The notes beneath the pieces are model-generated. The model ran no database searches. It was not told where the DNA came from and was given only the letters and a program-made list of their open reading frames with translations. A stretch of DNA of 36,953 nucleotides from Ramlibacter sp. (GTDB lineage: Bacteria > Pseudomonadota > Gammaproteobacteria > Burkholderiales > Burkholderiaceae_C): NCBI GenBank assembly GCA_028292105.1, contig JAQGMY010000223.1, positions 1-36,953 on the forward strand, given 5' to 3'. A program made the translations under genes and the position numbers. Positions 4,528 through 33,385 of the stretch are shown here, one piece after another (positions within the stretch are counted from its first letter, which is position 1; every line of letters starts with the position of its first letter).

Positions 4528-5457
4528 ATGGACTTCAAGCAGCTGCAGACTTTCCTCGCGATTGCCGAATGCGGCAGTGCGACCAAGGCTGCGCAGTTGC
4601 TGAACATCGTGCAGCCGGCGATCTCGCGCCAGATGCGCCTGCTGGAGGAAGACCTCGGCACTCCGCTGTTCCTGCGCGAGCGCAACGGCATGGAGCTGAC
4701 CGAAGCCGGCCGCGCGCTGCTGGAGCGCGCCCGCCGCGTCATGCGCGAACTGGAAGAAGCGCGCGCCGAAGTGAAGCCTTCCAACGGTGTAGTCTCCGGC
4801 TTCGTCAACGTGGGCATGCCTTCGAGCATCTGCGACCTGCTCGCCGGCGACCTGGTGGCCACCATCAAGCGGCGCCATCCGCAGATCCGCATGCGCCTGC
4901 ACAGCGGCTACGGAGGCCCCCTGCAGCTGGCGATCCAGAACGGCGAGCTCGAAGTCGCCATCGTCAACGACCCCAAGCCGGGGCCGCTGGTGGAAACCCG
5001 CTTCGTGCTGAACGAGCAGTTGTTCCTGGTGGGACCACCGCGGTCCGGGCTGACCCCCGAGCAGCCGCAGCCACTGACCGCCCTGAGGGGGCGACCGATG
5101 GTCTTGCCCAGCGGGCCACACTCCATGCGTACGACCGTGGAACATGCCTGCGCGCTGGAGAACGTGGAGCTCGTCATCGTGGCCGAGGTCAACGCGATGG
5201 ACATGCAGAAATCGCTGGTGCGGCACGGGGTCGGCTGGACGGTGCTGCCCAGCGCCGGCGTGTCGAGCGACCTCTGCGACGGTAGCCTGTCCGCGGCGCC
5301 GTTGGGTGGACCGAACCTGCAGCGCCACCTGGCGCTGTGCCTGCCGACGACGCGCCGCACTTCAGCAGCCGCCCGCTGCGTGACGAGCGCACTGATGGAC
5401 CTGATCCAGGTCACCGTGCGCGAGGGCCGCTGGCCCGGCGCGACCTTGGTCGACTAG
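4528..5457 (+). CDS. LysR-family transcriptional regulator
   Basis: 309 aa, normal length. An N-terminal winged helix-turn-helix (about residues 1-60, with the typical QPAISRQMRLLEEDLGTPLF signature) is followed by a linker helix and a substrate-binding effector domain (about 90-300). The effector is unknown. The gene ends tail to tail with prpF: the two stop codons overlap in the 4-nt palindrome CTAG (5454-5457). It may control the catabolic operon that converges on it, but it does not lie divergent to that operon's promoter, the usual LysR arrangement, so this is a guess. GACAAT sits 9 nt before the ATG and could serve as a -10 for a nearly leaderless mRNA. Confidence 0.92.
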   Translation: MDFKQLQTFLAIAECGSATKAAQLLNIVQPAISRQMRLLEEDLGTPLFLRERNGMELTEAGRALLERARRVMRELEEARAEVKPSNGVVSGFVNVGMPSSICDLLAGDLVATIKRRHPQIRMRLHSGYGGPLQLAIQNGELEVAIVNDPKPGPLVETRFVLNEQLFLVGPPRSGLTPEQPQPLTALRGRPMVLPSGPHSMRTTVEHACALENVELVIVAEVNAMDMQKSLVRHGVGWTVLPSAGVSSDLCDGSLSAAPLGGPNLQRHLALCLPTTRRTSAAARCVTSALMDLIQVTVREGRWPGATLVD

Positions 5458-6626
5458 AACCCGGGCGGCACCAGCACCACGCCGTCCATCAGCCGGCGGG
5501 CCGTGCGGCTGAGACGCACTGCTTTCACCTTTGCGTCATCGCCCGAACCGCTCACCTCGGCGCCCACCTTCAGCAGCCCCGAAGGATGGCCGACTCTCAG
5601 AACCGGCCGCGAGCCAGCGGCGATGGCGCGAGCCACCACGGTTTGCGAAATGGCCGCGGCCGCAGCCGTTGCGACGGCACCAGTGCCGGTCACCGCATGG
5701 TGCAACTTGCCCATGGACAGGATCCGCACCGCCAGGTCGTAGTCGCTGGCCGCCATCTCGCGCCCGCTGGAAGTGCGATAGGCCTGTGGCGACGAGACGA
5801 ACGCGATCTTGGGCGTGGCGGGCCGCTGCGCGGTCGCCTCCTGCGCCGAAGATGCAAGCCCCATGGCCACCGCACCGTGGGCGCGGATCGCCTCCAGTTT
5901 CGCCAGCAGTGCCGGATCGCCATTGACGTCGCCCTGCATCTGCATGCCGGAGAGTCCCAGCGCGTCAGCGCGCACGAAGACCGTCGGATTGCCGGCGGTG
6001 ATCAGGGTGACCTCGATCGCGCCGATACCCGGCACGTCCAGAATCTCGGCAGCGCGTCCCGTGGGGAAGAGCTGCGCCCCCTCGGCATCCGAACCGCCCG
6101 GATCCAGGAATTCCAGCGCGATTTCGGCGCCCGGGAAGGGCACGCCGTCGAGCTCGAAGGAGCCGGTCTCGACCACTGCACCGTCCTGCATGGGCACGCT
6201 GGCGATGATCCGCTTGCCAATGTTGGCCTGCCAGATGCGGACCACGGCGATGCCGTGGCGCGGCGCCTGCACCAGGCCCCGCTGGATCGCGAACGGCCCG
6301 ACCGCGGTCGTGAGGTTGCCGCAGTTGCCGCTCCAGTCAATCAATGGCTGGGTAATGTCGACCGCGCCGAAGAGGAAGTCGACATCGCAGTCCGGCCGCA
6401 TGCTGCGCGAGACCAGCACCACCTTGCTGGTGCTCGAGGTGGCGCCGCCCATGCCGTCGATGTGCTTTTCGTAGGGGTCGGGACTGCCCACCACCCGCAG
6501 CAGCAGCCGGTCGCGCACCTGCGCGTCGTTCCGCGCTGCCGCCGGCAGGTCGTCGGGCACGAAGAACACGCCCTTGCTGGTACCGCCGCGCATGTACGTG
6601 GCGCGGACCTCGATCTGCGCGCTCAT
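5454..6626 (-). CDS. prpF: PrpF/DUF453-family isomerase (methylaconitate or methylitaconate type)
   Basis: Members isomerise 2-methylaconitate (PrpF) or 3-methylitaconate to dimethylmaleate (Mii), with a diaminopimelate-epimerase fold. 390 aa, full length. The N-terminus carries [11 protein letters not shown]; the SSTSK lysine (K68) and the NCGN cysteine (C102) match by context the PrpF active-site lysine and cysteine. The ATG at 6626 overlaps the prpB stop as ATGA. It is the last gene of the long operon. PrpF normally supports AcnD, but the aconitase here is AcnA-like and no prpC is present. A methylitaconate-type reaction is therefore a serious alternative. Confidence 0.88.
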
Positions 6627-7501
6627 TTGGCCACCGCGCTGGCAGGCGCGAACAGCTCGTCGAGGTGCTTCTCGAAAGCGAAGTAGCCGATGGTGTCGTA
6701 CAGCTCCATGCGGGTCTGCATGGTGTCGACCACGGCGCGCTGCGTGCCATCGCGCCGGATGGTGGCGTACACGTTCTCGGCAGCGCGGTTCATGGCGCGG
6801 AAGGCGCTCAGCGGATAGAGCGCCATCGCAACACGGGCGTCTCGCAGATCTTCGACTGTGAACAGCGGCGTGCTGCCGAATTCTGTGAGGTTGGCGAGCA
6901 CCGGAACCTTCACCGCGTCGACGAAGCGGCGATAGGTTTCCAGGCTGGTCGCCGCCTCGGCGAAGATACCGTCCGCCCCCGCTTCGACGCATCGGAGCGA
7001 GCGCTCGATCGCAGCGTCTATGCCTTCGGCGGCGATGGCGTCGGTGCGCGCGATCACGAAGAACTCGGGGTCGGTGCGGGCGTCGACGGCCGCCTTGATG
7101 CGATCGGCCATTTCCTGGCTGGTCACCACCTCCTTGCCCGGACGATGGCCGCAGCGCTTGGCGCCGACCTGGTCCTCGATATGGCACGCGGAAGCGCCTG
7201 CCTTGGCCAGCGACTTCACGGTGCGGGCGATGTTGAAAGCGCTCGGGCCGAAGCCGGTGTCGATGTCCACCAGCAGTGGCACATCGCAGACGTCCGTGAT
7301 GCGTTGCACGTCGATCAGCACGTCGTGCAGGGTATTGATGCCCAGGTCCGGCATGCCCAACGATCCGGCCGCGACGCCGCCGCCTGACAGGTAGATTGCG
7401 CGGAACCCTGCGTGCCTGGCGAGCAGGGCCGTCTGGGCATTGAGGGTACCGACGATCTGCAGCGGGGATTCCTCCGCCAGGGCGCGCCTGAAGCTTTTCA
7501 T
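6623..7501 (-). CDS. prpB: PrpB-type 2-methylisocitrate lyase (ICL/PEP mutase family)
   Basis: Splits 2-methylisocitrate to pyruvate and succinate; the close relative 2,3-dimethylmalate lyase gives pyruvate and propionate. 292 aa, family-typical. Visible signatures: DIDTGFG (D79, D81) and HIED (107-110) for Mg2+, and the catalytic loop KRCGHRPGK with C117. The C-terminal [20 protein letters not shown] and DTMQTR blocks are strongly PrpB-like. GGAGAG lies 7 nt before the ATG. It follows the dehydrogenase gene after 39 nt and overlaps prpF. One departure from the usual FPEA motif is FAEA. Assignment as true PrpB is likely by similarity, but the substrate in this context is open. Confidence 0.9.
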
Positions 7502-7540
7502 TGTTTTCTCTCCAACTCGGGGAAATTCTCGTGGCAGCAG

Positions 7541-8505
7541 CTAGACCAGCGCGTCGGCGGGCGCCCCGCTCCAGACCCTCTGGAAGTTGCCATAGGCGAA
7601 ATCGCCACGCCGGGTCCATGTGTCCCAGGTAGTGCCGGCGCTGTGCGGCGAGAGGACCACGTTGTCCAGGTCGCGCAAGGGACTGTCGCCGGGCAGCGGC
7701 TCCGGGTCGAAAGCGTCGAGCCCCGCCCCGAGGATGCGCTTGGTGCGCAGCGCATCGATCAACGCTGGCTGGTCAACCACTTCGCCGCGGGCGGTGTTGA
7801 TCAGCGTGGCCGTAGGTTTCATCATGGCCAACCGTTCGGCGTTCACCATGCGACGGCTTTGTTCGTCCAGCGGCGTGTGCAGCGACACGATGTCGGAAGT
7901 GCGGAACAAATCGTCAAGAGGCACCCAGCGGACGTTCAGCTCGCGCTCTTCGCCAGCCGCAAGCCGCGTGCGGTTGTGGTACTGCACGTTGGCGTCGAAG
8001 GCCTGGACGCGGCGCGCCACCTTGCGCCCGATGTTGCCCAGCCCCACGATCCCCACCAGCTTGTTGGCCATCTCGTAGGTGTTGGTGCCGTCGATCTCCG
8101 CCTGCCACCGGCCCTGTCGCACCGACGCGTCACCCGCGAACAGGCGCCGGTAGAGCGCCAGCATCGCGAGTACGGCGTGATCGGCCACGGCGTACGAATT
8201 GGCCCCCGCGTTGTTGGCCAGCGGCAGGTTCAGCTCGCGCAGCAGCGGCAGGTCCAGCATGTCGTAGCCGGCGGAGAGCAGCTGCACCAGCCTCGCGCGC
8301 CGCGCGGCGCGAAACACGGAGGCCTTTGGCTTGGCCCGGTAGATCATCAGGAAATCGGCGTCGCGCACGGCTTCGACCTGCGTGTCCTCGGGGGACCTGG
8401 CGTCGATCGCCACGGTCTCGAAGCCCGGCGGGTTGCAGGCGACGATGCACTGCACCAGCCGCGGGTCCAGGCCGTGGAGGAAGACGACGCGCGCTTTCCG
8501 GTCCG

Positions 8506-8509
<4 letters not shown>
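7541..8509 (-). CDS. D-isomer-specific 2-hydroxyacid dehydrogenase
   Basis: Interconverts a 2-oxoacid and a D-2-hydroxyacid with NAD(P)H in the cytoplasm. 322 aa. The nucleotide-binding motif is GLGNIG (156-161); the catalytic residues are R241 (INTARGE), E270 (FDPEP) and H289 (SPHSAG). The residue after the second Rossmann strand is Asn-Arg-Thr (YHNRTR) rather than an acidic residue, which suggests NADP preference (inference). The ATG at 8509 overlaps the aconitase stop as ATGA; an upstream in-frame extension into the aconitase gene is rejected. Its place among carboxylic-acid enzymes suggests it handles a hydroxy-acid intermediate of the same pathway. Confidence 0.9.
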
Positions 8510-11153
<2,644 letters not shown>

Positions 11154-11154
<1 letters not shown>

Positions 11155-11750
11155 CACTGTGCCCGGAAGAAATACAAGAACAATGCGATGGCGGCCGCGC
11201 CGGCGAAGGACGCGCCCATCGCGATCGGCGACGGCAAGGAACGCGTGGGGAGGCTGGCCTTCACCGGCATGGCGACGCTTTCGGCAGGGGCCGGCGCGGT
11301 CACCGCGACCGGCATTTCAACCACGTGCTTGAAGCGGGTGAAGAACTCCGTCGACATCTTGGCCGCGACGCCGTCGATCAAGCGGGCGCCGACCTGTGCC
11401 AGCTTTCCGCCCACCTTGGCGTTGGCCGTGTAACTGAGCATGGTGCCGTAGGCGCTGGGTGCCAGCAGTACGGTAGCGCCGCCCTTCGCGAAGCCGGCGG
11501 CGCCACCGGTGCCTTCGAAGGTCAGCGTATAGCCCTCTTGCGGGCGGATATCCGAAAGCGCGAGCTTGCCGCTGAAGCGGGCCTTCACTGGCCCGACCGT
11601 TGCCAGGACGGCCACGCGATAGGCGTTCTCGCCATCGGGAAGCAAGGCTTCGCACCCGGGAATGCACTGCTGCAGCACCGCCGGATCGTTGAGCGACGCC
11701 CACACCCCGGCCGGATCGCGCCGGATCTCCTGCGTACCTGCGAGTTCCAT
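11154..11750 (-). CDS. CoxG-like SRPBCC protein with C-terminal membrane anchor
   Basis: Carbon monoxide dehydrogenase subunit G family: a START/SRPBCC-fold domain (about residues 1-145, with PGCEAL and FEGTGGAAGFAKGGA) followed by an Ala/Pro-rich linker. A single hydrophobic helix near 176-194 ends in FFRAQ. CoxG proteins accompany molybdenum hydroxylases and are thought to help recruit or mature the enzyme at the membrane. 198 aa. The ATG at 11750 is 7 nt after the deacetylase-like stop, and the stop overlaps the aconitase start. A longer frame upstream would intrude into the neighbouring gene and is rejected. Confidence 0.87.
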
Positions 11751-11757
11751 CGGCCGC

Positions 11758-12594
11758 TTACCGGCTGGCCGCGACGTGGCGGTCAGCGATCTGGCTGCGA
11801 GTGCAAATCCAGGCGTCCCGGCATTCGATGGCCGCTTCGATGATGCGCTCGTGGTAGTAGGCCCCGCGCGGATGACCGAAGATGTGCGCGTGCGAAGTGA
11901 CGTCGATGATCGTCGGTTCACCCGTCTTGCGGGCGATGTCCAGGTTCTGGCGGAAGCTTTCCAGCATGGCTGCCGGCTCCGTGCCGAACTTCATGAAGGG
12001 CATGTCGTTGACGTCGGTGCCGAAAGGGATGCAGACGATGCTCTTGTCGCCGAAGGTCTGCGTGTAGGGCAGGTCGTCGTCGAACACATCGCCGAAGTGC
12101 TGGTAACCGGCCTCCGCCAGCAACTGCGCTGAGCGCACGCTGGGCGTGCCGCGCGGGCTCAACCAACCGCGCACCTTGGTGCCGGCGGCTTCCTCGAGCA
12201 GGGACGTTGTGCGCTTGATGTTGGCGCGCTCGGCTTCTTCGGAGAGCAGCAGCGGCACCACGTCCATGGCGTAGGAATGGCCCATGATCTCGTGGCCGCC
12301 TTCGACGCAGGCGCGAATGGATTCCGGCGCGCGTTCCGCGATCACGCCGTTGACCATCACGCTGGCCTTGGCGTCGAACTTCTTGAACGAGTCCAGCAGG
12401 CGGTAGATGCCGCGCTTCATGCCGTAGGCGGCCCACGAATTCGCCATGGTGTCCACCAGGCCCGGCGTGGGCGGCAGCGGGTTGCCCATCGGGCTGATGC
12501 CGGGGGCCTTGCCGTCGGACCAGCCCTCCAGGCAGACGTTGAAGACCACGGCGATGCGCTTGCCGTCGGGCCAGTTCAGGTTGAATTGCGTCAT
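11758..12594 (-). CDS. Polysaccharide-deacetylase-fold hydrolase, PuuE/cyclic-imidase-like
   Basis: NodB-fold protein of 278 aa. The classical Asp-Asp metal motif is missing; the first motif reads NVCLEGWSDG (E23), like the PuuE/allantoinase-type branch, which includes a known bacterial cyclic imide hydrolase. The second motif is HEIMGHSYAMD (H101, H106) and a late motif is SHAHIFGHPRG. Ring opening of a cyclic amide or imide is therefore more likely than sugar deacetylation (inference from family). Start: the ATG at 12594 has AGGA 6 nt upstream. An ATG at 12615, overlapping the upstream stop as ATGA and adding 7 residues, is the alternative. No signal peptide is visible, so it is cytoplasmic. 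Confidence 0.85.
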   Translation of the reverse strand: MTQFNLNWPDGKRIAVVFNVCLEGWSDGKAPGISPMGNPLPPTPGLVDTMANSWAAYGMKRGIYRLLDSFKKFDAKASVMVNGVIAERAPESIRACVEGGHEIMGHSYAMDVVPLLLSEEAERANIKRTTSLLEEAAGTKVRGWLSPRGTPSVRSAQLLAEAGYQHFGDVFDDDLPYTQTFGDKSIVCIPFGTDVNDMPFMKFGTEPAAMLESFRQNLDIARKTGEPTIIDVTSHAHIFGHPRGAYYHERIIEAAIECRDAWICTRSQIADRHVAASR

Positions 12595-12611
12595 GGGAAG
12601 TCCTGTCTTTT

Positions 12612-13577
12612 TCATTCAGCCGAGATGCCGGCCTGCTTGATCAGCTTGGTCATCCTGTCCAGGTCCGTGCGCAGCATGGCGCCGAACCTTTCGGTCGACT
12701 CGCCGACCGGCTCGTAGCCGGTGGGCACCATCTTTTCCTTGACCTCGGGCGCCTTGAGGATCGCCGCGGTCGCCGCATTGACTTTGGCGATGATGGCCCC
12801 GGGCGTTCCCTTGGGCGCCATCATCCCGATCCAGGTTTCGATCGAGCACTCGCCCCAGCCGTTCTCGCCCAGCGTGGGAATCGTCGGCGTGAGCGCCCAG
12901 CGCCCGTTGCTCGAAACCGCGAGCGCGCGAATGCGGTCCGCCTTGATGAAGCTGCCTGCCGACGCCAGCGTCGTCATCACCGCGGGCACCTGGCCGCCCA
13001 CGACGTCAGCCACGGCCGGCGCACCGCCCTTGTACGGAACGTGTTCCAGCTTGGCGCCGGTGGTCGCCTTCAGGCATTCGGCCACCAGGTGCGCGCCGCT
13101 GCCTACGCCGATCGAACCGTAAGGCAGGGGCTTGGTCTTCGCTGACTCGATCAGCTCCTTGACGCTCTTGAACGGCGAGGTCGGGTGCACAACCAGCACG
13201 CTGGGACCCCGTGCGATCTGCACCACGGGCACCAGTTCATCGAAGCTGTAGCCGGGCTTGGCATACAACGACGGGTTCACCGTGTGGTTGTTGGAGGTAA
13301 TGAGGAAGGTGTTGCCGTCGGGGGCCGCCTTGGCCACGAACTGGCTGGCGATGTTGCCGCCGGCGCCGGGCTTGTTCTCGACCAGCACCGTGCGGCCCAG
13401 GGCGGTGGACAGCCGCTCGCCGACGATGCGTGCGAACTGGTCCGCGGCACCCCCGGGGGCCGTAATCACGATGAGGCGGATCGGCTGGTCGGAGGCGGGC
13501 TGGGCCACCGCCATGTTCACGCTGGCCAGGCACCCTGCCGCGAGCACCGCGAGGCTTTGGGCAAACCGTGTTTTCAT
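12612..13577 (-). CDS. TctC/Bug-family tripartite tricarboxylate transporter substrate-binding protein
   Basis: Periplasmic solute receptor. 321 aa from the ATG at 13577, with AAGGAGA correctly spaced upstream. The signal peptide covers about residues 1-25 (cleavage near AVAQ). The mature start QPIRLIVITAPGGAADQFAR is followed by ENKPGAGGNIAS, VPYKGGAPAVADVVGGQV and a C-terminal Bug domain. The ligand is unknown, most likely a carboxylate that feeds the surrounding pathway. No membrane partner genes (tctA, tctB) are present. It sits between the small molybdenum-hydroxylase subunit (28 nt) and the deacetylase-like gene. Confidence 0.93.
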   Translation of the reverse strand: MKTRFAQSLAVLAAGCLASVNMAVAQPASDQPIRLIVITAPGGAADQFARIVGERLSTALGRTVLVENKPGAGGNIASQFVAKAAPDGNTFLITSNNHTVNPSLYAKPGYSFDELVPVVQIARGPSVLVVHPTSPFKSVKELIESAKTKPLPYGSIGVGSGAHLVAECLKATTGAKLEHVPYKGGAPAVADVVGGQVPAVMTTLASAGSFIKADRIRALAVSSNGRWALTPTIPTLGENGWGECSIETWIGMMAPKGTPGAIIAKVNAATAAILKAPEVKEKMVPTGYEPVGESTERFGAMLRTDLDRMTKLIKQAGISAE

Positions 13578-13605
13578 CTTGTCTCCTTGGGTCTTCTTGA
13601 AATCT

Positions 13606-14112
13606 TCAGGCGGCGCCGACCGGCTGCGAAAGTGCAATGCGGCCGGTTTTGAGCGCGGCGACCTTTACGGCCTGCACGACCTCCGGATAGGTGGCGCAGC
13701 GGCACAGGTTGCCCGACAAGTACGCGCGGGTCTGCTCGTCGGTCGGGTCCGGGTACTTCTCGAGCAACTGCGTCGTCATCATCACGAAGCCGGGCGTGCA
13801 GAAGCCGCACTGGAACGCGCCGCATTCGACGAACGCCTCCTGTACCGGGCTCAGCCGGCCGTCCTTGGCCAAGCCTTCGACGGTGTTGACTTCGGCGCCA
13901 TCGACCAGCGCGGCCAGGTGCAGGCAGGACGACACGGCCAGGCCGTTGACGGTCACCGTGCAGCAGCCGCACAGGCCCTGGCCGCAGCTTTCGCGCGCGC
14001 CGTTCAGGCCGAAGCCGCGCAGGACTTCGATCAGCGACTGGTGCGGCGCCACATGGCCGGACACGGTTTCGCCGTTCAACTTGAACGAAATGAGGGAGCC
14101 CTTGGCGTCCAT
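13606..14112 (-). CDS. Molybdenum hydroxylase small subunit, two [2Fe-2S] clusters (CoxS/XdhC-type)
   Basis: Electron-transfer subunit of the xanthine-oxidase family. 168 aa. The plant-ferredoxin-type cluster is bound by C43, C48, C51 and C63 (ESCGQGLCGCC motif). The helical second cluster is bound by C102, C105, C137 and C139 (QCGFCTPGF and NLCRCATYP). The ATG at 14112 lies 1 nt after the large-subunit stop, with AAGGA upstream. Order in the operon is FAD subunit, Mo subunit, Fe-S subunit, the usual heterotrimer. It passes electrons from the molybdopterin centre to FAD. Confidence 0.95.
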   Translation of the reverse strand: MDAKGSLISFKLNGETVSGHVAPHQSLIEVLRGFGLNGARESCGQGLCGCCTVTVNGLAVSSCLHLAALVDGAEVNTVEGLAKDGRLSPVQEAFVECGAFQCGFCTPGFVMMTTQLLEKYPDPTDEQTRAYLSGNLCRCATYPEVVQAVKVAALKTGRIALSQPVGAA

Positions 14113-14113
14113 G

Positions 14114-16399
14114 TCAGTCCTTTGCGAGGGGGCGGCCCTCGGCTTCGCGCAACGCGCGGAATACGGTTTCGGGGGTGAGCGGCAGCGTCGTCAGGCGCAC
14201 GCCAATGGCGTCTTCGATCGCGTTGGCGATGGCGGGCGAGACGGCGAAGCTCGCCGACTCGCCGACACCCTTGGCGCCGAAGGGGCCGCTTTGCTGGGCT
14301 GACTCCACGATCACGTTTTCGATCACACGCGGGATGTCGTGCATGCCGGGGATCTTGTAATACGCCAGCGAACCGTTGGTGAGTTCGCCTTGCGAGAACT
14401 GCATCTCCTCGGTCATCGCGCCGCCCAGCGCCATGATGGCCGCACCTGACAGTTGCGTGGCGATGATGCCGGGGTTGATCACCTTGCCGGCGTCGGCCAC
14501 GCTCACCAGTCGATTGATGCGCACATGCCCGGTCTGGGTGTCGACTTCGACCTCGACACCCGTGCCGCCCGTCATCCAGTACGGCGTGATGTTGCGCGAC
14601 ATGCCAGTCGCCGGATCGACTGGTTCGTAGCTGGACGTGTAGTTGCCCACGCCGATCACATTGCCGGCGCTCATTCCGTGCTTGCGACGGAACAAGTCGC
14701 CGATCGACGTGTCGGCCGGCAGTTCCAGCGCCTTCGCCATTGCCTGCAGCTGCGCGCGTGCATCCTCGCCCGCCAGACGGACCGCATGTCCCATGTGGAA
14801 GGTCGAGCGCGACCCGAGCGTGCCCATGTCGTAAGGGGTCACGGCCGTGTCCGCACGAACCACCTTGATGCGTTGCAGCGGGATTTTCAGGGTGTCGGCG
14901 GCGATCTGCGACATCGCCGTGTCGCTGCCCTGCCCCATGTCGATGGTGTTGCAGTACAGCGTGGCGCTGCCGTCAGCAGCCACGTTGAGCATGGCCACGG
15001 AGGTGGTCGGCGAGATGGAGGCCTTGATCCCGATCGCGATGCCGCGTCCGCGGCGGATCGTGCCTTCGCTGCGCACGAGCGGCTGCTGCCATTTCATGCG
15101 CTCTCCCAGTTCCGCGAGCACCTGCGGGATTGCGGCGTCGCGCATCACGGTGCCGGTGGCATGCTCCTGCCCCTCCTGAAGCGCATTCAGCTGCCGGAAA
15201 GCGAGCGGGTCCATGGCCAGCGCCCGCGCGATCATGTCGGTGTGGCTCTCGTAGGCCCACACGAGCTGGGGCACGCCGAAGCCGCGCATCGCCCCAGCCG
15301 GCGGCAGATTGGTGTAGATCGCGTACGAGTCGATGTGGACGTGTTCGATCGCGTACGGCCCGGCGGCGGTAAAGCCCGACTTCTGCGTGATGCGCGGGCC
15401 GATGTCAGCATAGGCGCCGCCGTTCCACCAGATCTCGCAGTGGCGGGAGGTGAGGCGGCCGTCGCGCTGCACACCGCTCTTGATGCGAACCGTGGCCGCA
15501 TGGTTGGTGATGGTGTAGAACTGCTCCTCCATCGTGAGCGCGACGCGAACCGCACGGCGAGTCAGTAGCGCCAGCGCGGCGGCCAGCGCCTCCAGCTTGA
15601 TGTAGACCTTGGCGCCGAAGCCGCCGCCCAGCAGGCCGGACTTCACGCGGACCTGGCTCTCGGACCAGCCCAGCAAGCGGGCAATCTCGATGCGCACGAA
15701 GGACGGCATCTGCGTGGCCGAGTGGATCACGATGCCGTCGCCATCCGGCTCCGCCAGCGAAAGCATCGGTTCCAGCGGCGTGTGCATCACCGGCTGCACC
15801 TTGAAGGTGTGCTCGAAGACGTGGTCGGACGCGGCGAAGGCCTTCTCCACGTCGCCGCGGCGCAGGCGGAAATCCAGCGCCAGGTTGGTGTCCTTTCGGC
15901 CCTTCAGGTGCTTCAGATCGGGGAAGGTGCCCGCCGGCCGCAGTTCGTCGTGCACGATCGCTCGTGACTTCAGCGCCTCGACCTCGTCGAAGACCGCCGG
16001 CAGTTCCTCGTACTCCACTTCGATCAGCGCGGCCGCTTCTTCCGCAACGTGCGGGTCGGACGCGAGCACCACGGCCACCGGCTCACCAATGTGGCGCACC
16101 TTGCCCAGGGCCAGGATCGGCTGGTCATGGAAGGCCGGGCCGTAGTACGGATCCGGAATGATGCGCAGCACGTCTTCGCCAGTGAACACCGAGTGCACGC
16201 CGGCCAGGGCCCTGGCTGCGCTCGTGTCGATCGCCACGATCCGGCCATGGGCCACGCGGCTGCGGTGGATCTTCGCGTGCAGCATGTTCGGCAGGCGCAC
16301 GTTGTGCACGTACTCCGCCGCGCCGGTCACCTTGGCGTGGCCCTCGATGCGCGGCACCGCGGTGCCAACGTACGCATCCGGCTTCTTTGATTCGATCAT
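14114..16399 (-). CDS. Molybdenum hydroxylase large subunit (molybdopterin-binding)
   Basis: Catalytic subunit that hydroxylates a C-H bond, often of an N-heterocycle or aldehyde, with oxygen from water. 761 aa. Visible hallmarks are GGGFGAKVYIKLEA, the AMRGFGVPQ loop, MGQGSDTAMSQIAADTL and the C-terminal GAKGVGES with the catalytic glutamate. The CO-dehydrogenase loop AYxCSFR is absent, so this is not a true CoxL; the AMRGFG loop is xanthine-dehydrogenase-like. GGGAG precedes the ATG at 16399, which overlaps the FAD-subunit stop as ATGA. Substrate unknown; the operon context suggests the first oxidative step of a catabolic pathway. Confidence 0.95.
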   Translation of the reverse strand: MIESKKPDAYVGTAVPRIEGHAKVTGAAEYVHNVRLPNMLHAKIHRSRVAHGRIVAIDTSAARALAGVHSVFTGEDVLRIIPDPYYGPAFHDQPILALGKVRHIGEPVAVVLASDPHVAEEAAALIEVEYEELPAVFDEVEALKSRAIVHDELRPAGTFPDLKHLKGRKDTNLALDFRLRRGDVEKAFAASDHVFEHTFKVQPVMHTPLEPMLSLAEPDGDGIVIHSATQMPSFVRIEIARLLGWSESQVRVKSGLLGGGFGAKVYIKLEALAAALALLTRRAVRVALTMEEQFYTITNHAATVRIKSGVQRDGRLTSRHCEIWWNGGAYADIGPRITQKSGFTAAGPYAIEHVHIDSYAIYTNLPPAGAMRGFGVPQLVWAYESHTDMIARALAMDPLAFRQLNALQEGQEHATGTVMRDAAIPQVLAELGERMKWQQPLVRSEGTIRRGRGIAIGIKASISPTTSVAMLNVAADGSATLYCNTIDMGQGSDTAMSQIAADTLKIPLQRIKVVRADTAVTPYDMGTLGSRSTFHMGHAVRLAGEDARAQLQAMAKALELPADTSIGDLFRRKHGMSAGNVIGVGNYTSSYEPVDPATGMSRNITPYWMTGGTGVEVEVDTQTGHVRINRLVSVADAGKVINPGIIATQLSGAAIMALGGAMTEEMQFSQGELTNGSLAYYKIPGMHDIPRVIENVIVESAQQSGPFGAKGVGESASFAVSPAIANAIEDAIGVRLTTLPLTPETVFRALREAEGRPLAKD

Positions 16400-17265
16400 G
16401 CGGCGCTCCCATCCGCCAGCGCGGTGGTGATGACACGCCCGAGGTAAACCTTGAGCAATTCCTTCTTGTAGGCGCCCGATCCCTGGGCATCGCCCAGGAA
16501 CTCGACACCCTCGGCGGCCGCCTCGCCGGCGCGCCGCAGCAGCGCCGCATCGGGAATCTGTCCTGCCAGCACGGCTTCCGCCGCGAGCAACCGGGTCGGC
16601 CGGTCGGTGGCGGCGCCCACGAACAGGCGGCAGTTGCGAACCGCATTGCGTTCCATGGACAGCGAGGCGGCGACGCCCAGCGCCGGCCAGTCGTCGGCCG
16701 AGCGGGTGGTCACCTTGACATAGGCGCTGTGCCGTCCCGCCTGCGGCGGCACCACCAGCGAAGCGATCAGTTCATTGCCGGCCAGGCGGGTCTCGTAGTA
16801 CCCCTTGATCAACGCATCGACCTGGATCCGGCGCTCGCCCGAGGGGCCGACTGCGACCACGTAGGCATCCAGCGCCGACAACAGCGGCGGCAGGTCCATG
16901 TGCGGATCGGCGTGCGCGAGATTGCCGCCCACGGTGGCGACGTTGCGCACCCGCACGTTCGACAGCCGTGTCATGCAGCGCCCGATGGCCGGGGCGGCGC
17001 GCCTGACCGCATCCGAATGTTCCAGTTGCGACATCGTCACCAGCGCACCGATGGCCAGCTCGCCGTTCGGGCGCAGCACGATGTCCCGCAGGTGCGGCTC
17101 GGTCGCTCGCAGGCTGACCAGCGCGCGCGGTCGCAGCACGCCGGCTTTCATCATCAGCATCAGTGCGGTACCGCCACCCATGGGACGGATGTCCGGGGTG
17201 TCGGGATCCAGCAGCGCGGCGGCTTCGCGCAGTGTCGCCGGCGTGAGTAGCTCAAAGGGGCTCAT
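16396..17265 (-). CDS. Molybdenum hydroxylase medium subunit, FAD-binding (CoxM-type)
   Basis: FAD subunit that delivers electrons to an acceptor. 289 aa, normal. FAD-binding motifs are MGGGTALMLMM (29-39) and ATVGGNLAHADPH (110-122). The C-terminal CO-dehydrogenase-flavoprotein domain covers about residues 180-285. It is the first gene of the ten-gene minus-strand operon. No Shine-Dalgarno sequence precedes the ATG at 17265, and a candidate promoter would start transcription about 4 nt upstream, so the mRNA may be nearly leaderless. Confidence 0.94.
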   Translation of the reverse strand: MSPFELLTPATLREAAALLDPDTPDIRPMGGGTALMLMMKAGVLRPRALVSLRATEPHLRDIVLRPNGELAIGALVTMSQLEHSDAVRRAAPAIGRCMTRLSNVRVRNVATVGGNLAHADPHMDLPPLLSALDAYVVAVGPSGERRIQVDALIKGYYETRLAGNELIASLVVPPQAGRHSAYVKVTTRSADDWPALGVAASLSMERNAVRNCRLFVGAATDRPTRLLAAEAVLAGQIPDAALLRRAGEAAAEGVEFLGDAQGSGAYKKELLKVYLGRVITTALADGSAA

Positions 17266-17406: not shown

Positions 17407-17685
17407 ATGGACCTGTACGTCTACTACCGCGTGCGCACCAGCGACGCCGAGGCCTTCCTGGCGCGCGCGCGCGGCTACGTGGAGCAGCTGCGGGCGGAGG
17501 AGCGCGTCGACGCATCGCTGAGCCGGCGGCCGGAAAGCACGGACGGCCTCGATACGTGGATGGAAGTGATCCCGCAGGCCGGTGACGCCTGCGAGCACAA
17601 GCTCCTCGAGCGCGTGGCGAGTTCCGGCATCGGCGCCTTCATCCAGGGCGAGCGCCACCTGGAGCGCTTCGAGCGGCTCATCTGA
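17407..17685 (+). CDS. DUF4936 family protein (92 aa)
   Basis: Small soluble protein beginning MDLYVYYRV, with an antibody-monooxygenase or ferredoxin-like alpha/beta look, a conserved WMEVIP stretch (residues 51-56) and a C-terminal HLERFERLI. DUF4936 proteins are common in Burkholderiales and have no established function. CCGGAG lies about 7 nt before the ATG. Its stop shares a base with the ubiX start (TGATG), so the two are co-translated. It is divergent from the molybdenum-hydroxylase operon. Confidence 0.82.
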   Translation: MDLYVYYRVRTSDAEAFLARARGYVEQLRAEERVDASLSRRPESTDGLDTWMEVIPQAGDACEHKLLERVASSGIGAFIQGERHLERFERLI

Positions 17686-18320: not shown

Positions 18321-19781
18321 ATGGAGCAGAAAACCGCCGCCAATCCCCTGGACCTGCGCCGCTGGATCGACGAGATGCGCCATCTCGGCGAGATCAGGGA
18401 CGTGCTCGGGGCGGATGCGCACCTCGAGCTCGGCGCCGTCAGCCAGCTGGTGGTCAAGAGGGACAAGCCACCCGCCTTGCTGTTCGACGAGATCGTCGGC
18501 TACCCCAAGGGACACCGTGTCCTCACGTGCAGCACGAGCAGCCCGACGCGGCTGTCGGCCATCCTGCGACTCGGCTTCGAGACTTCGCACCAGGGGCTGG
18601 TGGCGCGGATGCGCGGCAAGCCGGCGCAGTGGCAGGCGATGGCACCGCAGTTCGATCCCGTGCGCGTGAGCGAAGGCCCGGTGCTGGAGAACGTGCTCGA
18701 GGGCGAAGACGTGAACGTGGAAGCCTTTCCCGCGCCGCTGTGGAACGAGAAGGATGGCGGCCGCTTCATAGGCACGGGCTGCTCCATCGTGACGCGCGAT
18801 CTCGAGTCGGGCTGGATCAACGTCGGCACCTACCGCGTCATGGTGGTGGACCGCACGCACGTCACGCTGATGATGATCCCCGGCAAGCACGGGAGCCTCC
18901 AGCATGCCAAGTACATCAAGGCCGGCAAGCCTTTCCCCGTCGCCATCATCCTCGGCGCCGACCCGCTGAACTACCTGATCTCCGGCATCGAGGTTCCTTT
19001 CGAGATGAGCGAGTTCAACTACATCGGTGCGATCCTCGGCCAGCCGGTCTCCGTGGTGCATGGCGCACTGACCGACCTGCCTTTTCCCAGTGCGGCGGAG
19101 GTGGTGCTGGAAGGCTTCGCCTACCCGGGCGAGAAGGCGCCCGAGGGACCCTTCGGGGAATTCCTTGGCTACTACGCCGGCGACGTCGGGGAAGCACCGG
19201 TGGTGCGCATCGAAAGGGTCTATCACCGCCACAACCCGATCCTGGTCGGCAGCCCGCCCTCGAAACCGCCCAACGACTACTCGTACTCCAAGGCCGTGAT
19301 GCGCTCGGCGCTGCTGTTCAACGCCCTCGCCTCCGCCGGCGTGCCGGACGTACAGAGCGTCTGGGCCCACGAGGTCGGCGGTGCCCGCCTCTTCAATGTG
19401 GTCTCGATCAAGCAGCGCTATGCGGGACACGCGCGCCAGGCCGGCCACATCCTGAGCCAGTGCGGCGCGGGAGCGTACATGTCCAAATACACGATCGTGG
19501 TGGACGAGGACATCGACCCGGCCAACCTGCAGGAAGTGATGTGGGCGGTGGCCACGCGCACGGAGCCGGAGGAAGACTTCGACCTGATCAGGCGCGGCAT
19601 GGGATCCAAGACCGATCCGATGTCGATCGCCTACAAGCACTCGGCTACGCTGGCGTCGAAGGCTGTGATCGACGCCTGCAAGCCCTTCGAGTACCTGGCG
19701 AGGTTCCCCGCGGTGGTCGAAGCCAGCCGGGAACTGCAGGAGCAGGTGAAGGCGAAATGGAAGGACCTGTTCCAGGGCTGA
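18321..19781 (+). CDS. ubiD: UbiD-family prenyl-FMN-dependent decarboxylase
   Basis: Reversible (de)carboxylation of an aromatic or alpha,beta-unsaturated acid. 486 aa, full length. Active-site residues recognisable by context are R172 (NVGTYR) and the pair E275/E280 in PEGPFGEFLGYY; their spacing matches the Arg-Glu-Glu set of Fdc1/UbiD. GKHGSLQHAKYIKAG and GADPLNYLISG are typical. It probably serves catabolism and not ubiquinone synthesis, since it sits with Bug and aromatic-degradation genes (inference). Only a weak ribosome-binding site precedes the ATG. A hairpin follows the stop. Confidence 0.93.
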   Translation: MEQKTAANPLDLRRWIDEMRHLGEIRDVLGADAHLELGAVSQLVVKRDKPPALLFDEIVGYPKGHRVLTCSTSSPTRLSAILRLGFETSHQGLVARMRGKPAQWQAMAPQFDPVRVSEGPVLENVLEGEDVNVEAFPAPLWNEKDGGRFIGTGCSIVTRDLESGWINVGTYRVMVVDRTHVTLMMIPGKHGSLQHAKYIKAGKPFPVAIILGADPLNYLISGIEVPFEMSEFNYIGAILGQPVSVVHGALTDLPFPSAAEVVLEGFAYPGEKAPEGPFGEFLGYYAGDVGEAPVVRIERVYHRHNPILVGSPPSKPPNDYSYSKAVMRSALLFNALASAGVPDVQSVWAHEVGGARLFNVVSIKQRYAGHARQAGHILSQCGAGAYMSKYTIVVDEDIDPANLQEVMWAVATRTEPEEDFDLIRRGMGSKTDPMSIAYKHSATLASKAVIDACKPFEYLARFPAVVEASRELQEQVKAKWKDLFQG

Positions 19782-20972: not shown

Positions 20973-22406
20973 GTGCCGGAACCGAAGCCCTTCGACGCAT
21001 TGGTGATCGGCGCCGGAGTGGCCGGCCTGTTTTGCGCCACCGCGCTGGCCGACGCCGGCCTGCGGGTCTGCGTGCTGGAGGGCGCGGCGATACCGGGCGG
21101 CCGGGCCCGCAGCTGGCAGGACCCGACGACGGCCACCGAGATCGACGTCGGCCCGCACGTGGTCAGCACCGAGCACCTGAACTTCCTGCGCATGCTGGAG
21201 CGGCTCGGCACCGCCCGCCATGTCGCCTGGCAGCCGGACACCTTGATCGACCTGTTCGATACCGGCGAGTTGCTCAAGATCGCCAACGTGCGCTGGACGC
21301 CGCCGCTGCACGGGCTGCCGAACATCCCGGTCGCGCTGCGGCGCCTGTCCGTCGCCGATGCGCTTTCGCACACGCGACTCGGCTGGCGGGCGGCGCGCGC
21401 GAACGAGCACACCCTGCGCGAACTCGATGCACAGGATGCGGCGAGCTACTTGCGTGTCATGGGCGTGACAGAACGCGGCATCGACTGGTTCTGGCGCTCG
21501 GCCATGCTCGCCCTGCTCAACGTGCCGCTGGAGCAGTGCTCTGCCGCATCGGCGATGCGCGTGTTCCGGCTGATGCTGGGGCGCAGCGGCTATCACTTCG
21601 GTTTTCCGGCGCTGGGGCTGTCGCAGTTGTACGTTCCCGCCTGCACGGAGGCGATCCGCGCCCGGGGCGGCGAGGTGCGCACTGCAACCGTGGTCCACAG
21701 CCTCCAGGTCGAGGGCGGCGCCTGCCGCGGCGTGCAGCTGCGCGATGGCACGCAGCTGCGGGCGCCGCTCAGTGTGCTCGCCGTTGCGCCCTGGCATGCG
21801 GCGCCGCTGCTGGCACGCACCGGGAATACCTCGCTCACTGCCTTGCAGCGAGCCGCCGCCGGCTTTCGCGGGGCGCCCTATATCAGCACGATGCTGTGGC
21901 TGGACCGACACGTCACCGATCACCGCTTCTGGGCCCGGGTGTGGAATCCAGCCGACCTGAACACGGACTTCTACGACCTCTCCAACATCCGGCCGGAGCG
22001 CGCCGGCACTGGCTCGCTCATCGCCTGCAATGCGATCGGCCCCAACGTTCGCTGGCAGTGGAGCGACGCCCAGGTGATCGCCCGCAGCCGCGCCGAGCTG
22101 GAGGAGTTCGCGCCCGCCGCCCGTGGTGCCAGCCTGCTGCATGCGCGCGTGCACCGCATTCGCGCCGCGATCCCGCAGGCCGCGCCCGGCACCGAGCTGC
22201 TGCGCCCCGGCACGCGCACGCCAGTGGATGGCCTGTTCGTCGCCGGCGACTGGACCGACACGGCCGTGCCGTGCTCGATGGAGAGCGCGGCGCGCTCGGC
22301 CGCCTTGGCCGCCGAGGCGATCTTCGGTGAGGCCCACGCGCTGCCGGCGCCGGAGACCTACGGGCTGGTCGGGCTGCTGCGCTCCCGCCGCAAGACGAAG
22401 AAGTAG
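20973..22406 (+). CDS. FAD-dependent amine-oxidase-type protein, hydroxysqualene dehydroxylase (HpnE)-like
   Basis: 477 aa flavoprotein of the amine oxidase/phytoene desaturase superfamily. The N-terminal FAD motif is VIGAGVAGLFCA (G13, G15, G18), followed by GGRARSW. The C-terminal motif GLFVAGDWTDTAVPCSMESA resembles HpnE and carotenoid desaturases. HpnE removes the hydroxyl of hydroxysqualene in squalene synthesis, normally beside hpnC and hpnD, which are not in this window. Another isoprenoid oxidoreductase role is thus possible. The start is a GTG; TAAGCT 6 nt before it could be a -10 of a leaderless mRNA. Its tail overlaps the convergent gene by 49 bp. Confidence 0.8.
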   Translation: MPEPKPFDALVIGAGVAGLFCATALADAGLRVCVLEGAAIPGGRARSWQDPTTATEIDVGPHVVSTEHLNFLRMLERLGTARHVAWQPDTLIDLFDTGELLKIANVRWTPPLHGLPNIPVALRRLSVADALSHTRLGWRAARANEHTLRELDAQDAASYLRVMGVTERGIDWFWRSAMLALLNVPLEQCSAASAMRVFRLMLGRSGYHFGFPALGLSQLYVPACTEAIRARGGEVRTATVVHSLQVEGGACRGVQLRDGTQLRAPLSVLAVAPWHAAPLLARTGNTSLTALQRAAAGFRGAPYISTMLWLDRHVTDHRFWARVWNPADLNTDFYDLSNIRPERAGTGSLIACNAIGPNVRWQWSDAQVIARSRAELEEFAPAARGASLLHARVHRIRAAIPQAAPGTELLRPGTRTPVDGLFVAGDWTDTAVPCSMESAARSAALAAEAIFGEAHALPAPETYGLVGLLRSRRKTKK

Positions 22407-22876
22407 GGGCGCTCCATGCCCTTGCAGTCCATCAGCCCCAGCACCGCATCGCCCGCGAGCTGCCGGAACACGTCCTGGATCGGCACCTCGTCGTACACCA
22501 TGGTCGCGGTGAGCTCGCCGCGGAACTGCACCAGGCGAAGCCGGGCTTTGGAACGACCGGTGGCCAGGAGCGGCAGCCCGGCGCGCGCGAGGGCGGCGAA
22601 CGGCTGCGACTTCAGCCAGGGCCAGCGCATCACCAGCGGCAGAAAAGGCGCCAGCCAAGCCGGCCGCAGCGACAACGCACCGGCCCAGGTCGCGAACACG
22701 AGCGGATGCACATCCTCGTCGCTGTCGAAACGCTTGCCCGCCCAGTGGTAGGCCTCCAGGGCGCCGTCGAGCGGGTGTCCGGTCGGCAAGCCCTCGCCGC
22801 GCCAGGCCCCGCGCATCGAGTCGATGGCAGCCGGGGCGAGCGAATCGAAGAGGGCGAGGGCTTGCTCGGTGTTCAC
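22358..22876 (-). CDS. GXWXG / DUF4334 domain protein
   Basis: Two-domain uncharacterised family. From a likely GTG start at 22876 it is 172 aa: a GXWXG motif (G23-A-W-R-G27), GHPLDGALEAYHWAGKRF and FATWAGALSL, then the DUF4334 part with VRFRGE-like strands, MVYDEVPIQDVFR and MDCKGMERPYFFVLRR. The start is uncertain: the frame is open further upstream but would run into the divergent cytochrome-fusion gene. The C-terminal 49 nt overlap the flavoprotein gene in antisense. The function is not established; the domains resemble lipocalin-like folds. Confidence 0.78.
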   Translation of the reverse strand: MNTEQALALFDSLAPAAIDSMRGAWRGEGLPTGHPLDGALEAYHWAGKRFDSDEDVHPLVFATWAGALSLRPAWLAPFLPLVMRWPWLKSQPFAALARAGLPLLATGRSKARLRLVQFRGELTATMVYDEVPIQDVFRQLAGDAVLGLMDCKGMERPYFFVLRRERSSPTSP

Positions 22877-22971
22877 GCCCTCGGACGATAACGCAAGCCC
22901 CTGGCTTACCCCGATGATCTTCAGCGCCGCTGCGGCTAGCCTGAGCCGATCACTCGACACCGGAGGCTGCG

Positions 22972-27378: not shown

Positions 27379-27407
27379 TGTGGGTTCCTTGGTCGAGCGA
27401 GCGGTCG

Positions 27408-29632: not shown

Positions 29633-29673
29633 CGTTTGTCTCCTGTGAATTTGATTTGTATGCGCCAGGGTTC

Positions 29674-30639: not shown

Positions 30640-30652
30640 GGGTCGCTCTCCT

Positions 30653-31537: not shown

Positions 31538-31559
31538 GTGTTGTCCTGGCGTGGGGTGA

Positions 31560-33294: not shown

Positions 33295-33385
33295 CAATAC
33301 GAGAATGATATATTGAAATGCTGCGCTCATCGGAAGTTCGGTGCAGTCGCAGCGTTTCCTACCGCGGATCAGAGGGGGTTGCCGA

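What the first reader, a model, noticed from the sequence alone, without database searches (positions are those of the whole stretch)
5454..17265. Ten-gene operon joining a molybdenum hydroxylase to an isomerase-hydratase-lyase module without PrpC
Seen: FAD, Mo and Fe-S hydroxylase subunits, Bug receptor, PuuE-like hydrolase, CoxG-like protein, AcnA-type aconitase, D-2-hydroxyacid dehydrogenase, PrpB and PrpF in one strand with overlaps or short gaps. Known: in Eubacterium barkeri nicotinate fermentation, a molybdenum nicotinate dehydrogenase starts the route. A PrpF-family methylitaconate isomerase, an aconitase-family dimethylmaleate hydratase and a PrpB-family dimethylmalate lyase end it with propionate and pyruvate. 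Inference: this operon may be an aerobic betaproteobacterial pathway of similar logic (ring or C-H hydroxylation, amide/imide hydrolysis, then hydratase and lyase steps) for an unidentified heterocyclic or branched carboxylic acid. A plain methylcitrate cycle would need PrpC, which is absent here.
Basis: partly seen in the sequence, partly recalled or inferred. Interest (0 to 1): 0.8.

Follow-up and report, generated by a model that had tools for sequence, protein, structure and literature searches.

The report
Nitrogen-ring degradation operon with methylisocitrate lyase
A bacterium carries a cluster of about twelve genes that looks built to oxidise, decarboxylate and open an unidentified nitrogen-containing ring and then to cut the resulting acid with enzymes of propionate and citric-acid metabolism type, a combination for which I found no description.

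Summary
The ten-gene operon is real (5454-17265, minus strand, gaps of at most 39 bases). PrpB, PrpF and AcnA are of methylisocitrate-lyase, methylaconitate-isomerase and AcnA type, not AcnD and not the E. barkeri dimethylmaleate types. No PrpC was found in the 83.5%-complete genome. So the substrate is probably a (hetero)aromatic carboxylate, not a branched acid. In a second genome all ten gene classes plus UbiD lie within about 22 kb; in a third AcnA-PrpF-PrpB adjoin PuuE and the dehydrogenase; two more have pieces on separate contigs. Best reading: Mo hydroxylation, UbiD decarboxylation and PuuE-type ring opening give an aconitate-type acid that PrpF, AcnA and PrpB split to succinate plus a 2-oxo acid. 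Substrate unproven; an isonicotinate/citrazinate-type pyridine acid fits best. The E. barkeri comparison holds as logic only. New variant of a known kind; interest 0.55.

The parts
16396..17265 (-). FAD subunit of xanthine-oxidase-family Mo hydroxylase
   Evidence: PF00941 135 bits, PF03450 67 bits
14114..16399 (-). Mo (molybdopterin) subunit of the hydroxylase
   Evidence: PF02738, PF20256, PF01315; PDB best hits 4-hydroxybenzoyl-CoA reductase, 6-hydroxypseudooxynicotine dehydrogenase
13606..14112 (-). 2Fe-2S subunit of the hydroxylase
   Evidence: PF01799, PF00111
12612..13577 (-). TctC/Bug substrate-binding receptor
   Evidence: PF03401 230 bits; start
11758..12615 (-). PuuE-like hydrolase (inferred cyclic imide/amide hydrolase); start may be 12594
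   Evidence: PF01522; TIGR03212 PuuE 108 bits, under its cut-off 424.6; PDB PuuE allantoinase
11154..11750 (-). CoxG-family protein
   Evidence: PF06240 101 bits; start inferred
8506..11157 (-). AcnA-type aconitase paralogue (about 50% identical to two other AcnA of the genome)
   Evidence: TIGR01341 1169 bits, cut-off 945; AcnD model 819, cut-off 1420; paralogues
7541..8509 (-). D-2-hydroxyacid dehydrogenase
   Evidence: PF02826 207 bits, PF00389; start
6623..7501 (-). PrpB, 2-methylisocitrate-lyase type
   Evidence: TIGR02317 411 bits, cut-off 354; PDB; compared residues kept
5454..6626 (-). PrpF, methylaconitate/aconitate isomerase type
   Evidence: TIGR02334 517 bits, cut-off 441; K73 and C107 positions kept
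4528..5457 (+). LysR-type regulator, convergent, candidate regulator
   Evidence: PF03466, PF00126
17266..17406 (.). intergenic region between the operon and the divergent DUF4936-UbiX-UbiD unit; presumed promoters
   Evidence: sequence; no promoter scan was run
17407..17685 (+). DUF4936 protein, first gene of the divergent unit; role unknown
   Evidence: PF16290
17685..18278 (+). UbiX flavin prenyltransferase
   Evidence: TIGR00421 241 bits, cut-off 109
18321..19781 (+). UbiD-family (prenyl-FMN) decarboxylase, inferred to belong to the same pathway
   Evidence: TIGR00148 273 bits, cut-off 245; housekeeping UbiD model 159, cut-off 788; 66-71% identical to UbiDs beside PuuE

Best explanation
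A dedicated aerobic catabolic locus for an N-heteroaromatic carboxylic acid, consisting of the ten-gene operon plus divergent UbiX-UbiD. Inferred steps: the Bug protein binds the substrate; the Mo hydroxylase (assisted by CoxG) puts oxygen on ring carbons next to N; UbiD with its UbiX-made cofactor removes a ring carboxylate; the PuuE-like enzyme opens the resulting cyclic imide/lactam; an amidase encoded elsewhere frees ammonia; PrpF moves the double bond or changes cis/trans geometry to give a cis-aconitate-type acid; AcnA hydrates it to an isocitrate-type acid; PrpB cleaves that to succinate (or a homologue) plus a 2-oxo acid; the dehydrogenase reduces the 2-oxo acid. If the acid is aconitate, products are succinate + glyoxylate; if 2-methylaconitate, succinate + pyruvate. 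Shown here: gene content, enzyme classes, recurrence of the linkage. Inferred: every reaction, and the substrate. My best guess of substrate, at about 0.25, is a pyridine acid with a 4-carboxylate (isonicotinate/citrazinate type, with a further carboxylate removed by UbiD), because opening such a ring gives aconitate.
For: Families. Second genome (G501 contig C1, CANCUP010000001.1): in about 22 kb DHA 55%, UbiD 71%, PuuE 65%, Bug 54%, split TPP enzyme, LysR, CoxG, FAD 47%, Mo 63%, FeS 61%, AcnA 48%, MmgE/PrpD, Bug, PrpF 59%, PrpB-family 38%. G507: AcnA-MmgE/PrpD-Bug-PrpF-PrpB-family on one contig with PuuE 62% and DHA 56%; G506 has the same pieces, the module and PuuE-DHA on separate contigs. 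G503: Mo 70% and PuuE 64% on one contig, PrpB 75%-AcnA-PrpF 66% with no citrate synthase gene in the stretch on another. Mo at >=55% identity lies in the fetched locus (at most 10 kb either side) with PuuE in 12 of 43 loci of the >=54% PuuE group and 0 of 37 of the rest (L170, a 54% locus whose PuuE frame was lost, counts among the 37). UbiD >=55% lies by the Mo genes in 11 of 16 order-level loci and about 7 kb from them in P. caribensis MBA4. UbiD is accessory: 4 of 58 other genus genomes have a match at E<=1e-70, the best 46% identical. Chemistry in print: PrpF interconverts cis/trans-aconitate and isomerises 4-methyl- to 2-methyl-cis-aconitate, AcnA hydrates 2-methyl-cis-aconitate (PMC5690661, passages); PrpF-superfamily TarA/TbrA are aconitate isomerases (PMC11495376, abstract and passages); HxnM, a cyclic imidase related to PuuE, opens the ring in a hydroxylase-started nicotinate pathway (PMC9304392, passages). 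A Mo hydroxylase 59% identical lies beside genes annotated tcuAB (tricarballylate dehydrogenase), with a second Mo hydroxylase and an amidase in the same stretch of Alicycliphilus plasmid pDP3.
Against: No amidase in the operon, though imide opening leaves an amide. The lower module is not universal: of 14 PuuE-bearing genomes searched, PrpF at 61-67% occurs in 4; 0 of the 7 with alphaproteobacterial titles has a PrpF at E<=1e-40; and G499 and G500, which have Mo, PuuE and UbiD, have only 37-40% PrpF relatives on other contigs and no AcnA at E<=1e-150. None of 16 Mo loci has PuuE or the trio nearby. Controls: 0 of 20 PrpF loci (fetched from 20 of 87 other matching genomes) and 0 of 15 AcnA-clade loci (all listed) hold such a Mo subunit, PuuE or UbiD, so the union is rare. 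The AcnA of G501 and G503 resembles this genome's C443 AcnA (54%, 56%) more than the operon's AcnA (48%, 52%). PrpB of G501 and G507 is another subfamily (276 and 285 bits, under the 354 cut-off), window PrpF does not branch with theirs, and their module has MmgE/PrpD, which the window lacks. No transcript, growth or enzyme data.
Confidence: 0.6

Rival explanations
1. Two pathways sit in one operon: a heteroaromatic acid pathway and an independent use of trans-aconitate/tricarballylate (Bug uptake, PrpF aconitate isomerase, AcnA, PrpB acting as an isocitrate lyase).
For: AcnA and a PrpF-domain protein beside tcuAB on Shinella pShin-03 and AcnA-PrpF beside a Bug gene in L237, L238; PrpF isomerises aconitate (PMC5690661, passages); the Mo loci occur without the trio, 16 of 16, and G499/G500 have Mo-PuuE-UbiD without it.
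Against: The trio is linked to PuuE and the dehydrogenase again in differently ordered clusters of two genomes, G501 and G507, with the same pieces on separate contigs in G506; CoxG, AcnA and the dehydrogenase are continuous with the ring genes in the window.
Confidence: 0.17
2. E. barkeri-type lower pathway: methylitaconate to dimethylmaleate to dimethylmalate to propionate + pyruvate, in an aerobic setting.
For: Same enzyme superfamilies in the same chemical order; Mo hydroxylase at the start.
Against: PrpF, PrpB and AcnA score far better as methylaconitate isomerase, methylisocitrate lyase and aconitase than as the methylitaconate or dimethylmalate types. No enamidase or B12 mutase was recognised among the window genes annotated.
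Confidence: 0.1
3. It is the genome's methylcitrate cycle, with prpC in the unassembled part or served by another citrate synthase.
For: PrpB and PrpF meet the NCBIfam cut-offs of the methylcitrate enzymes; genome is 83.5% complete.
Against: AcnD is replaced by AcnA, and PMC5690661 (passages) concludes that the S. enterica aconitases only do the rehydration step. No PrpC-type synthase found. 0 of 9 PrpB loci fetched from other genomes of the genus has a citrate synthase gene in the stretch. It would leave Mo, UbiD and PuuE unexplained.
Confidence: 0.06
4. Purine/ureide catabolism: xanthine dehydrogenase plus PuuE allantoinase, glyoxylate handled by the dehydrogenase.
For: The superfamilies fit.
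Against: The Mo-subunit matches to xanthine dehydrogenase models and the PuuE model lie far under cut-off (XdhA 516 under 780; PuuE 108 under 425). UbiD, AcnA, PrpF and PrpB have no place in it.
Confidence: 0.02

Closest known systems
AcnD/PrpF variant of the 2-methylcitrate cycle (prpBC-acnD-prpF)
   Same: PrpB and PrpF of the same types; an aconitase-superfamily hydratase between them
   Different: AcnA instead of AcnD, no PrpC found, fused to a ring-degradation operon
Eubacterium barkeri nicotinate fermentation (recalled and from the finding; no paper found)
   Same: Mo hydroxylase start, then isomerase, aconitase-superfamily hydratase and PrpB-superfamily lyase
   Different: PrpF, PrpB and AcnA here score as other branches of those families; UbiD present
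Aspergillus nidulans hxn nicotinate pathway (PMC9304392, passages)
   Same: Hydroxylase-started pyridine acid degradation with a PuuE-related cyclic imidase opening the ring
   Different: No UbiD step in the passages read; ends in hydroxyglutarate, no aconitase/lyase module
Isonicotinate degradation via citrazinate (recalled from literature; no paper found)
   Same: Mo hydroxylations then opening to an aconitate- or tricarballylate-type tricarboxylate would fit the lower module
tar trans-aconitate operon (TarA of the PrpF superfamily; PMC11495376, abstract and passages)
   Same: PrpF-superfamily isomerase feeding cis-aconitate to central metabolism
   Different: That operon holds an isomerase and a transporter; no ring enzymes

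Membership tests
2-methylcitrate cycle (AcnD/PrpF type) | PrpB methylisocitrate lyase | tested here: met
   TIGR02317 411 > 354; compared residues kept (residue names recalled)
2-methylcitrate cycle (AcnD/PrpF type) | PrpF methylaconitate isomerase | tested here: met
   TIGR02334 517 > 441
2-methylcitrate cycle (AcnD/PrpF type) | AcnD | tested here: not met
   TIGR02333 819 < 1420; AcnA model met
2-methylcitrate cycle (AcnD/PrpF type) | PrpC in operon or genome | tested here: not met
   genome 83.5% complete, so absence is not proven
E. barkeri nicotinate module | 3-methylitaconate isomerase | tested here: not met
   264 bits to 3g7k against 469 to PrpF
E. barkeri nicotinate module | two-subunit dimethylmaleate hydratase (two-subunit build recalled) | tested here: not met
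   single-chain AcnA, 1169 > 945
E. barkeri nicotinate module | 2,3-dimethylmalate lyase | tested here: not met
   145 bits to the only dimethylmalate lyase listed (3fa3) against 448 to methylisocitrate lyase; the E. barkeri enzyme itself was not compared
E. barkeri nicotinate module | enamidase and B12-dependent methyleneglutarate mutase (recalled) | tested here: inconclusive
   not recognised among annotated window genes; genome not searched for them
Xanthine-oxidase-family Mo hydroxylase | FAD, Mo and 2Fe-2S subunits | tested here: met
PuuE allantoinase | equivalog score | tested here: not met
   TIGR03212 108 < 424.6; family-level kinship met
UbiD family decarboxylase | subfamily score and UbiX partner | tested here: met
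   TIGR00148 273 > 245; UbiX 241 > 109
Housekeeping ubiquinone UbiD | PRK10922 score | tested here: not met
   159 < 788
Isonicotinate/citrazinate route | activity on citrazinate | not testable with these tools
   no enzyme data

The most novel reading that the evidence does not exclude
An undescribed aerobic pathway for a pyridine (or pyrrole) polycarboxylic acid in which Mo hydroxylation, UbiD decarboxylation and PuuE-type imide opening deliver aconitate or 2-methylaconitate to a PrpF-AcnA-PrpB module recruited from the methylcitrate cycle, giving succinate plus a 2-oxo acid without citrate synthase.
Probability: 0.4. Interest if true: 0.72.

Novelty: new variant of a known kind. Interest (0 to 1): 0.55.

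Why it matters
It would show that the isomerase-hydratase-lyase end of the methylcitrate cycle is a portable module used for ring degradation without its synthase, would offer an explanation for prpB, prpF and acnA genes found outside prp operons in Bug-rich Burkholderiales, and would name a testable substrate class for a recurrent Mo hydroxylase-UbiD operon.

Tried and rejected
Literature searches for an isonicotinate/citrazinate gene cluster, a PuuE-type imidase cluster, a UbiD + xanthine-dehydrogenase-family + aconitase + PrpB cluster and the E. barkeri genes listed no paper describing a cluster of this make-up; the library lacks most subscription journals, and apart from the three papers cited only listings were seen. 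The one paper listed for Ancylobacter ZM13 was not read. A suspected PrpB active-site change (FPEA to FAEA) proved common in PrpBs beside a citrate synthase gene (L089, L091, L096, L097) and was dropped; one search used a numbering off by one, and I shifted the offset so that the recalled residue names matched. A plasmid search with the dehydrogenase gave only four records, the best 39-46% identical. PuuE relatives at 46-50% identity in G071, G105 and G130 lie in other gene neighbourhoods. Structure prediction and promoter scans were not run.
Full report
Observation. With the most plausible starts the junctions are overlaps or gaps of at most 39 bases. Downstream, a LysR gene converges and overlaps the prpF stop by four bases; upstream, a DUF4936-UbiX-UbiD unit starts divergently from a 141-base intergenic region.

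What the lower enzymes are. PrpB passes the methylisocitrate-lyase cut-offs and matches solved 2-methylisocitrate lyases at up to 448 bits, against 145 for 2,3-dimethylmalate lyase. At 17 positions recalled as E. coli active-site residues it has the same residue (names recalled, offset set so that they match). PrpF passes the methylaconitate-isomerase cut-off and matches the solved PrpF at 469 bits, against 264 for 3-methylitaconate isomerase and at most 182 for oxalomesaconate isomerase; the lysine and cysteine that PMC5690661 names (K73, C107) align with identical residues. The aconitase passes the AcnA cut-off and falls far under the AcnD one. It is a third AcnA in this genome, about 50% identical to the other two. 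These are enzymes for aconitate-type tricarboxylates rather than for the dimethylmaleate branch.

PrpC. Three citrate-synthase-family proteins were found; only GltA meets a synthase model and none meets the PrpC-type model. The genome is 83.5% complete, so absence is not proven. In the genus, 9 of 58 other genomes have a PrpB relative at E<=1e-60, and none of those 9 loci (11 to 20 kb each) has a citrate synthase gene in the stretch, so PrpB outside a prpC operon is common among them.

UbiD belongs to the set. The window UbiD is not the ubiquinone enzyme. It is 71% identical to the UbiD right after PuuE in L130 and 66-68% in L128, L129 and L131. Only 4 of 58 other genus genomes have a match at E<=1e-70, the best 46% identical. 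When the Mo subunit was searched in 399 genomes of the order, 16 including the own genome matched at E<=1e-200, at 17 places; I fetched the other 16 places and 11 of 16 carry a UbiD at 68-70% beside the Mo genes. Some of the five without it lie on short contig ends (L284, L288, L294). Paraburkholderia caribensis MBA4 has a 66% Mo subunit, a CoxG and a 67% UbiD within about 12 kb. A decarboxylase of this family points to a (hetero)aromatic acid.

PuuE and the linkage. A profile of five PuuE sequences found 271 relatives, of which the best 80 were kept. In the group at 54% identity or more, 12 of 43 loci have the Mo subunit at 55% or more, against 0 of 37 in the rest; Fisher p is 0.0003, but related genomes inflate it. 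One locus, L170, listed at 54%, fell into the second group because its PuuE frame was lost in my gene picking. Fifteen of 43 (alpha) and 16 of 43 (beta) also have a split thiamine-diphosphate enzyme resembling sulfopyruvate decarboxylase, under the curated cut-offs.

Independent recurrence of the whole. I searched 14 PuuE-bearing genomes for AcnA and PrpF; 9 of 14 and 6 of 14 had matches at the thresholds used, PrpF at 61-67% in 4. In G501 (contig CANCUP010000001.1, 84,960 bases) the dehydrogenase, UbiD, PuuE, Bug, CoxG, FAD, Mo, FeS, AcnA, MmgE/PrpD, PrpF and PrpB-family genes lie within about 22 kb. In G507 AcnA-MmgE/PrpD-Bug-PrpF-PrpB-family is followed on the same contig by a dehydrogenase, Bug, PuuE and the 56% dehydrogenase; G506 has the same pieces on separate short contigs. 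G503 has Mo 70% with PuuE 64% on one contig and PrpB 75%-AcnA-PrpF 66% on another; its Mo and PrpB are among the nearest to the window's in the trees. I did not test G506 or G507 for Mo, nor G503 for UbiD or the dehydrogenase.

Against. In 20 PrpF neighbourhoods (20 of the 87 other matching genomes) and 15 AcnA-clade neighbourhoods no such Mo subunit, PuuE or UbiD occurs, and none of the 16 Mo loci has PuuE or the trio. G499 and G500 have Mo, PuuE and UbiD but no close PrpF and no AcnA at the threshold. The AcnA of G501 and G503 is nearer to this genome's C443 AcnA than to the operon's. So the full union is rare, and because PrpB subfamily, AcnA and gene order differ between the window and G501 it was probably assembled more than once. 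That favours a functional reason but also leaves room for two pathways sharing an operon. The operon lacks an amidase; one lies beside PuuE in L142 and a 44% identical one in the gene group on pDP3.

Mechanism. PrpF interconverts cis- and trans-aconitate and turns 4-methyl- into 2-methyl-cis-aconitate, and AcnA hydrates the latter with 40- to 50-fold lower efficiency than cis-aconitate (PMC5690661, passages). So the trio suffices, in principle, to turn an aconitate-type acid into succinate and glyoxylate or pyruvate. A PuuE-related cyclic imidase, HxnM, opens the ring in a hydroxylase-started nicotinate pathway (PMC9304392, passages). Opening a doubly hydroxylated pyridine-4-carboxylate would give aconitate; this is my inference, and isonicotinate degradation through citrazinate is recalled, not read. 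The pDP3 plasmid, where a 59% Mo hydroxylase stands beside genes annotated for tricarballylate, agrees with it.

Verdict. The finding is sound and was extended by two genes. The nearest description is a heteroaromatic-acid degradation locus with a methylcitrate-type lower module: a new combination of known parts. The substrate is open. On re-checking, G506 no longer counts as a linked cluster; the odds were set with its pieces on separate contigs and are unchanged.

Noticed in passing
window 26401-33215 (-): A second catabolic gene group: two Bug receptors, two FAD monooxygenases, a cupin protein and a fumarylacetoacetate-hydrolase-family gene, with an IclR regulator at 33341-34135.
   Followed up: no
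window 20973-24204 (+): Flavin amine oxidase beside a Vgb-lyase-family protein with a quinohemoprotein-amine-dehydrogenase haem-binding domain.
   Followed up: no
L281, L282, L285-L287, L289-L293, L295: Mo hydroxylase genes beside a UbiD at 68-70%, often with Bug genes and a small CoxG-like gene (CoxG by my reading of the sequence), a recurrent gene set of unknown substrate in the order searched.
   Followed up: partly
L224, L225, L226, L228, L229: A clade of AcnA at 59-65% identity to the operon's next to a PrpB-family lyase of another subfamily, in L225 with a carboxyltransferase and a CoA-transferase-like gene: another hydratase-lyase pair outside prp operons.
   Followed up: partly
L112-L120: PrpB relatives (56-77% identity) in the same genus, most with Bug genes in the stretch, without citrate synthase genes nearby.
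   Followed up: partly
L130, L133, L144, L146, L150, L154-L156 and others: Split sulfopyruvate-decarboxylase-like TPP enzyme, scores under curated cut-offs for the L130 pair, recurrent beside this PuuE group.
   Followed up: partly
G000:C286:6317-7321 (L002): Citrate-synthase-family protein with an apparent N-terminal helix-turn-helix region (my reading of the sequence) that matches no NCBIfam model at E<=1e-30.
   Followed up: no
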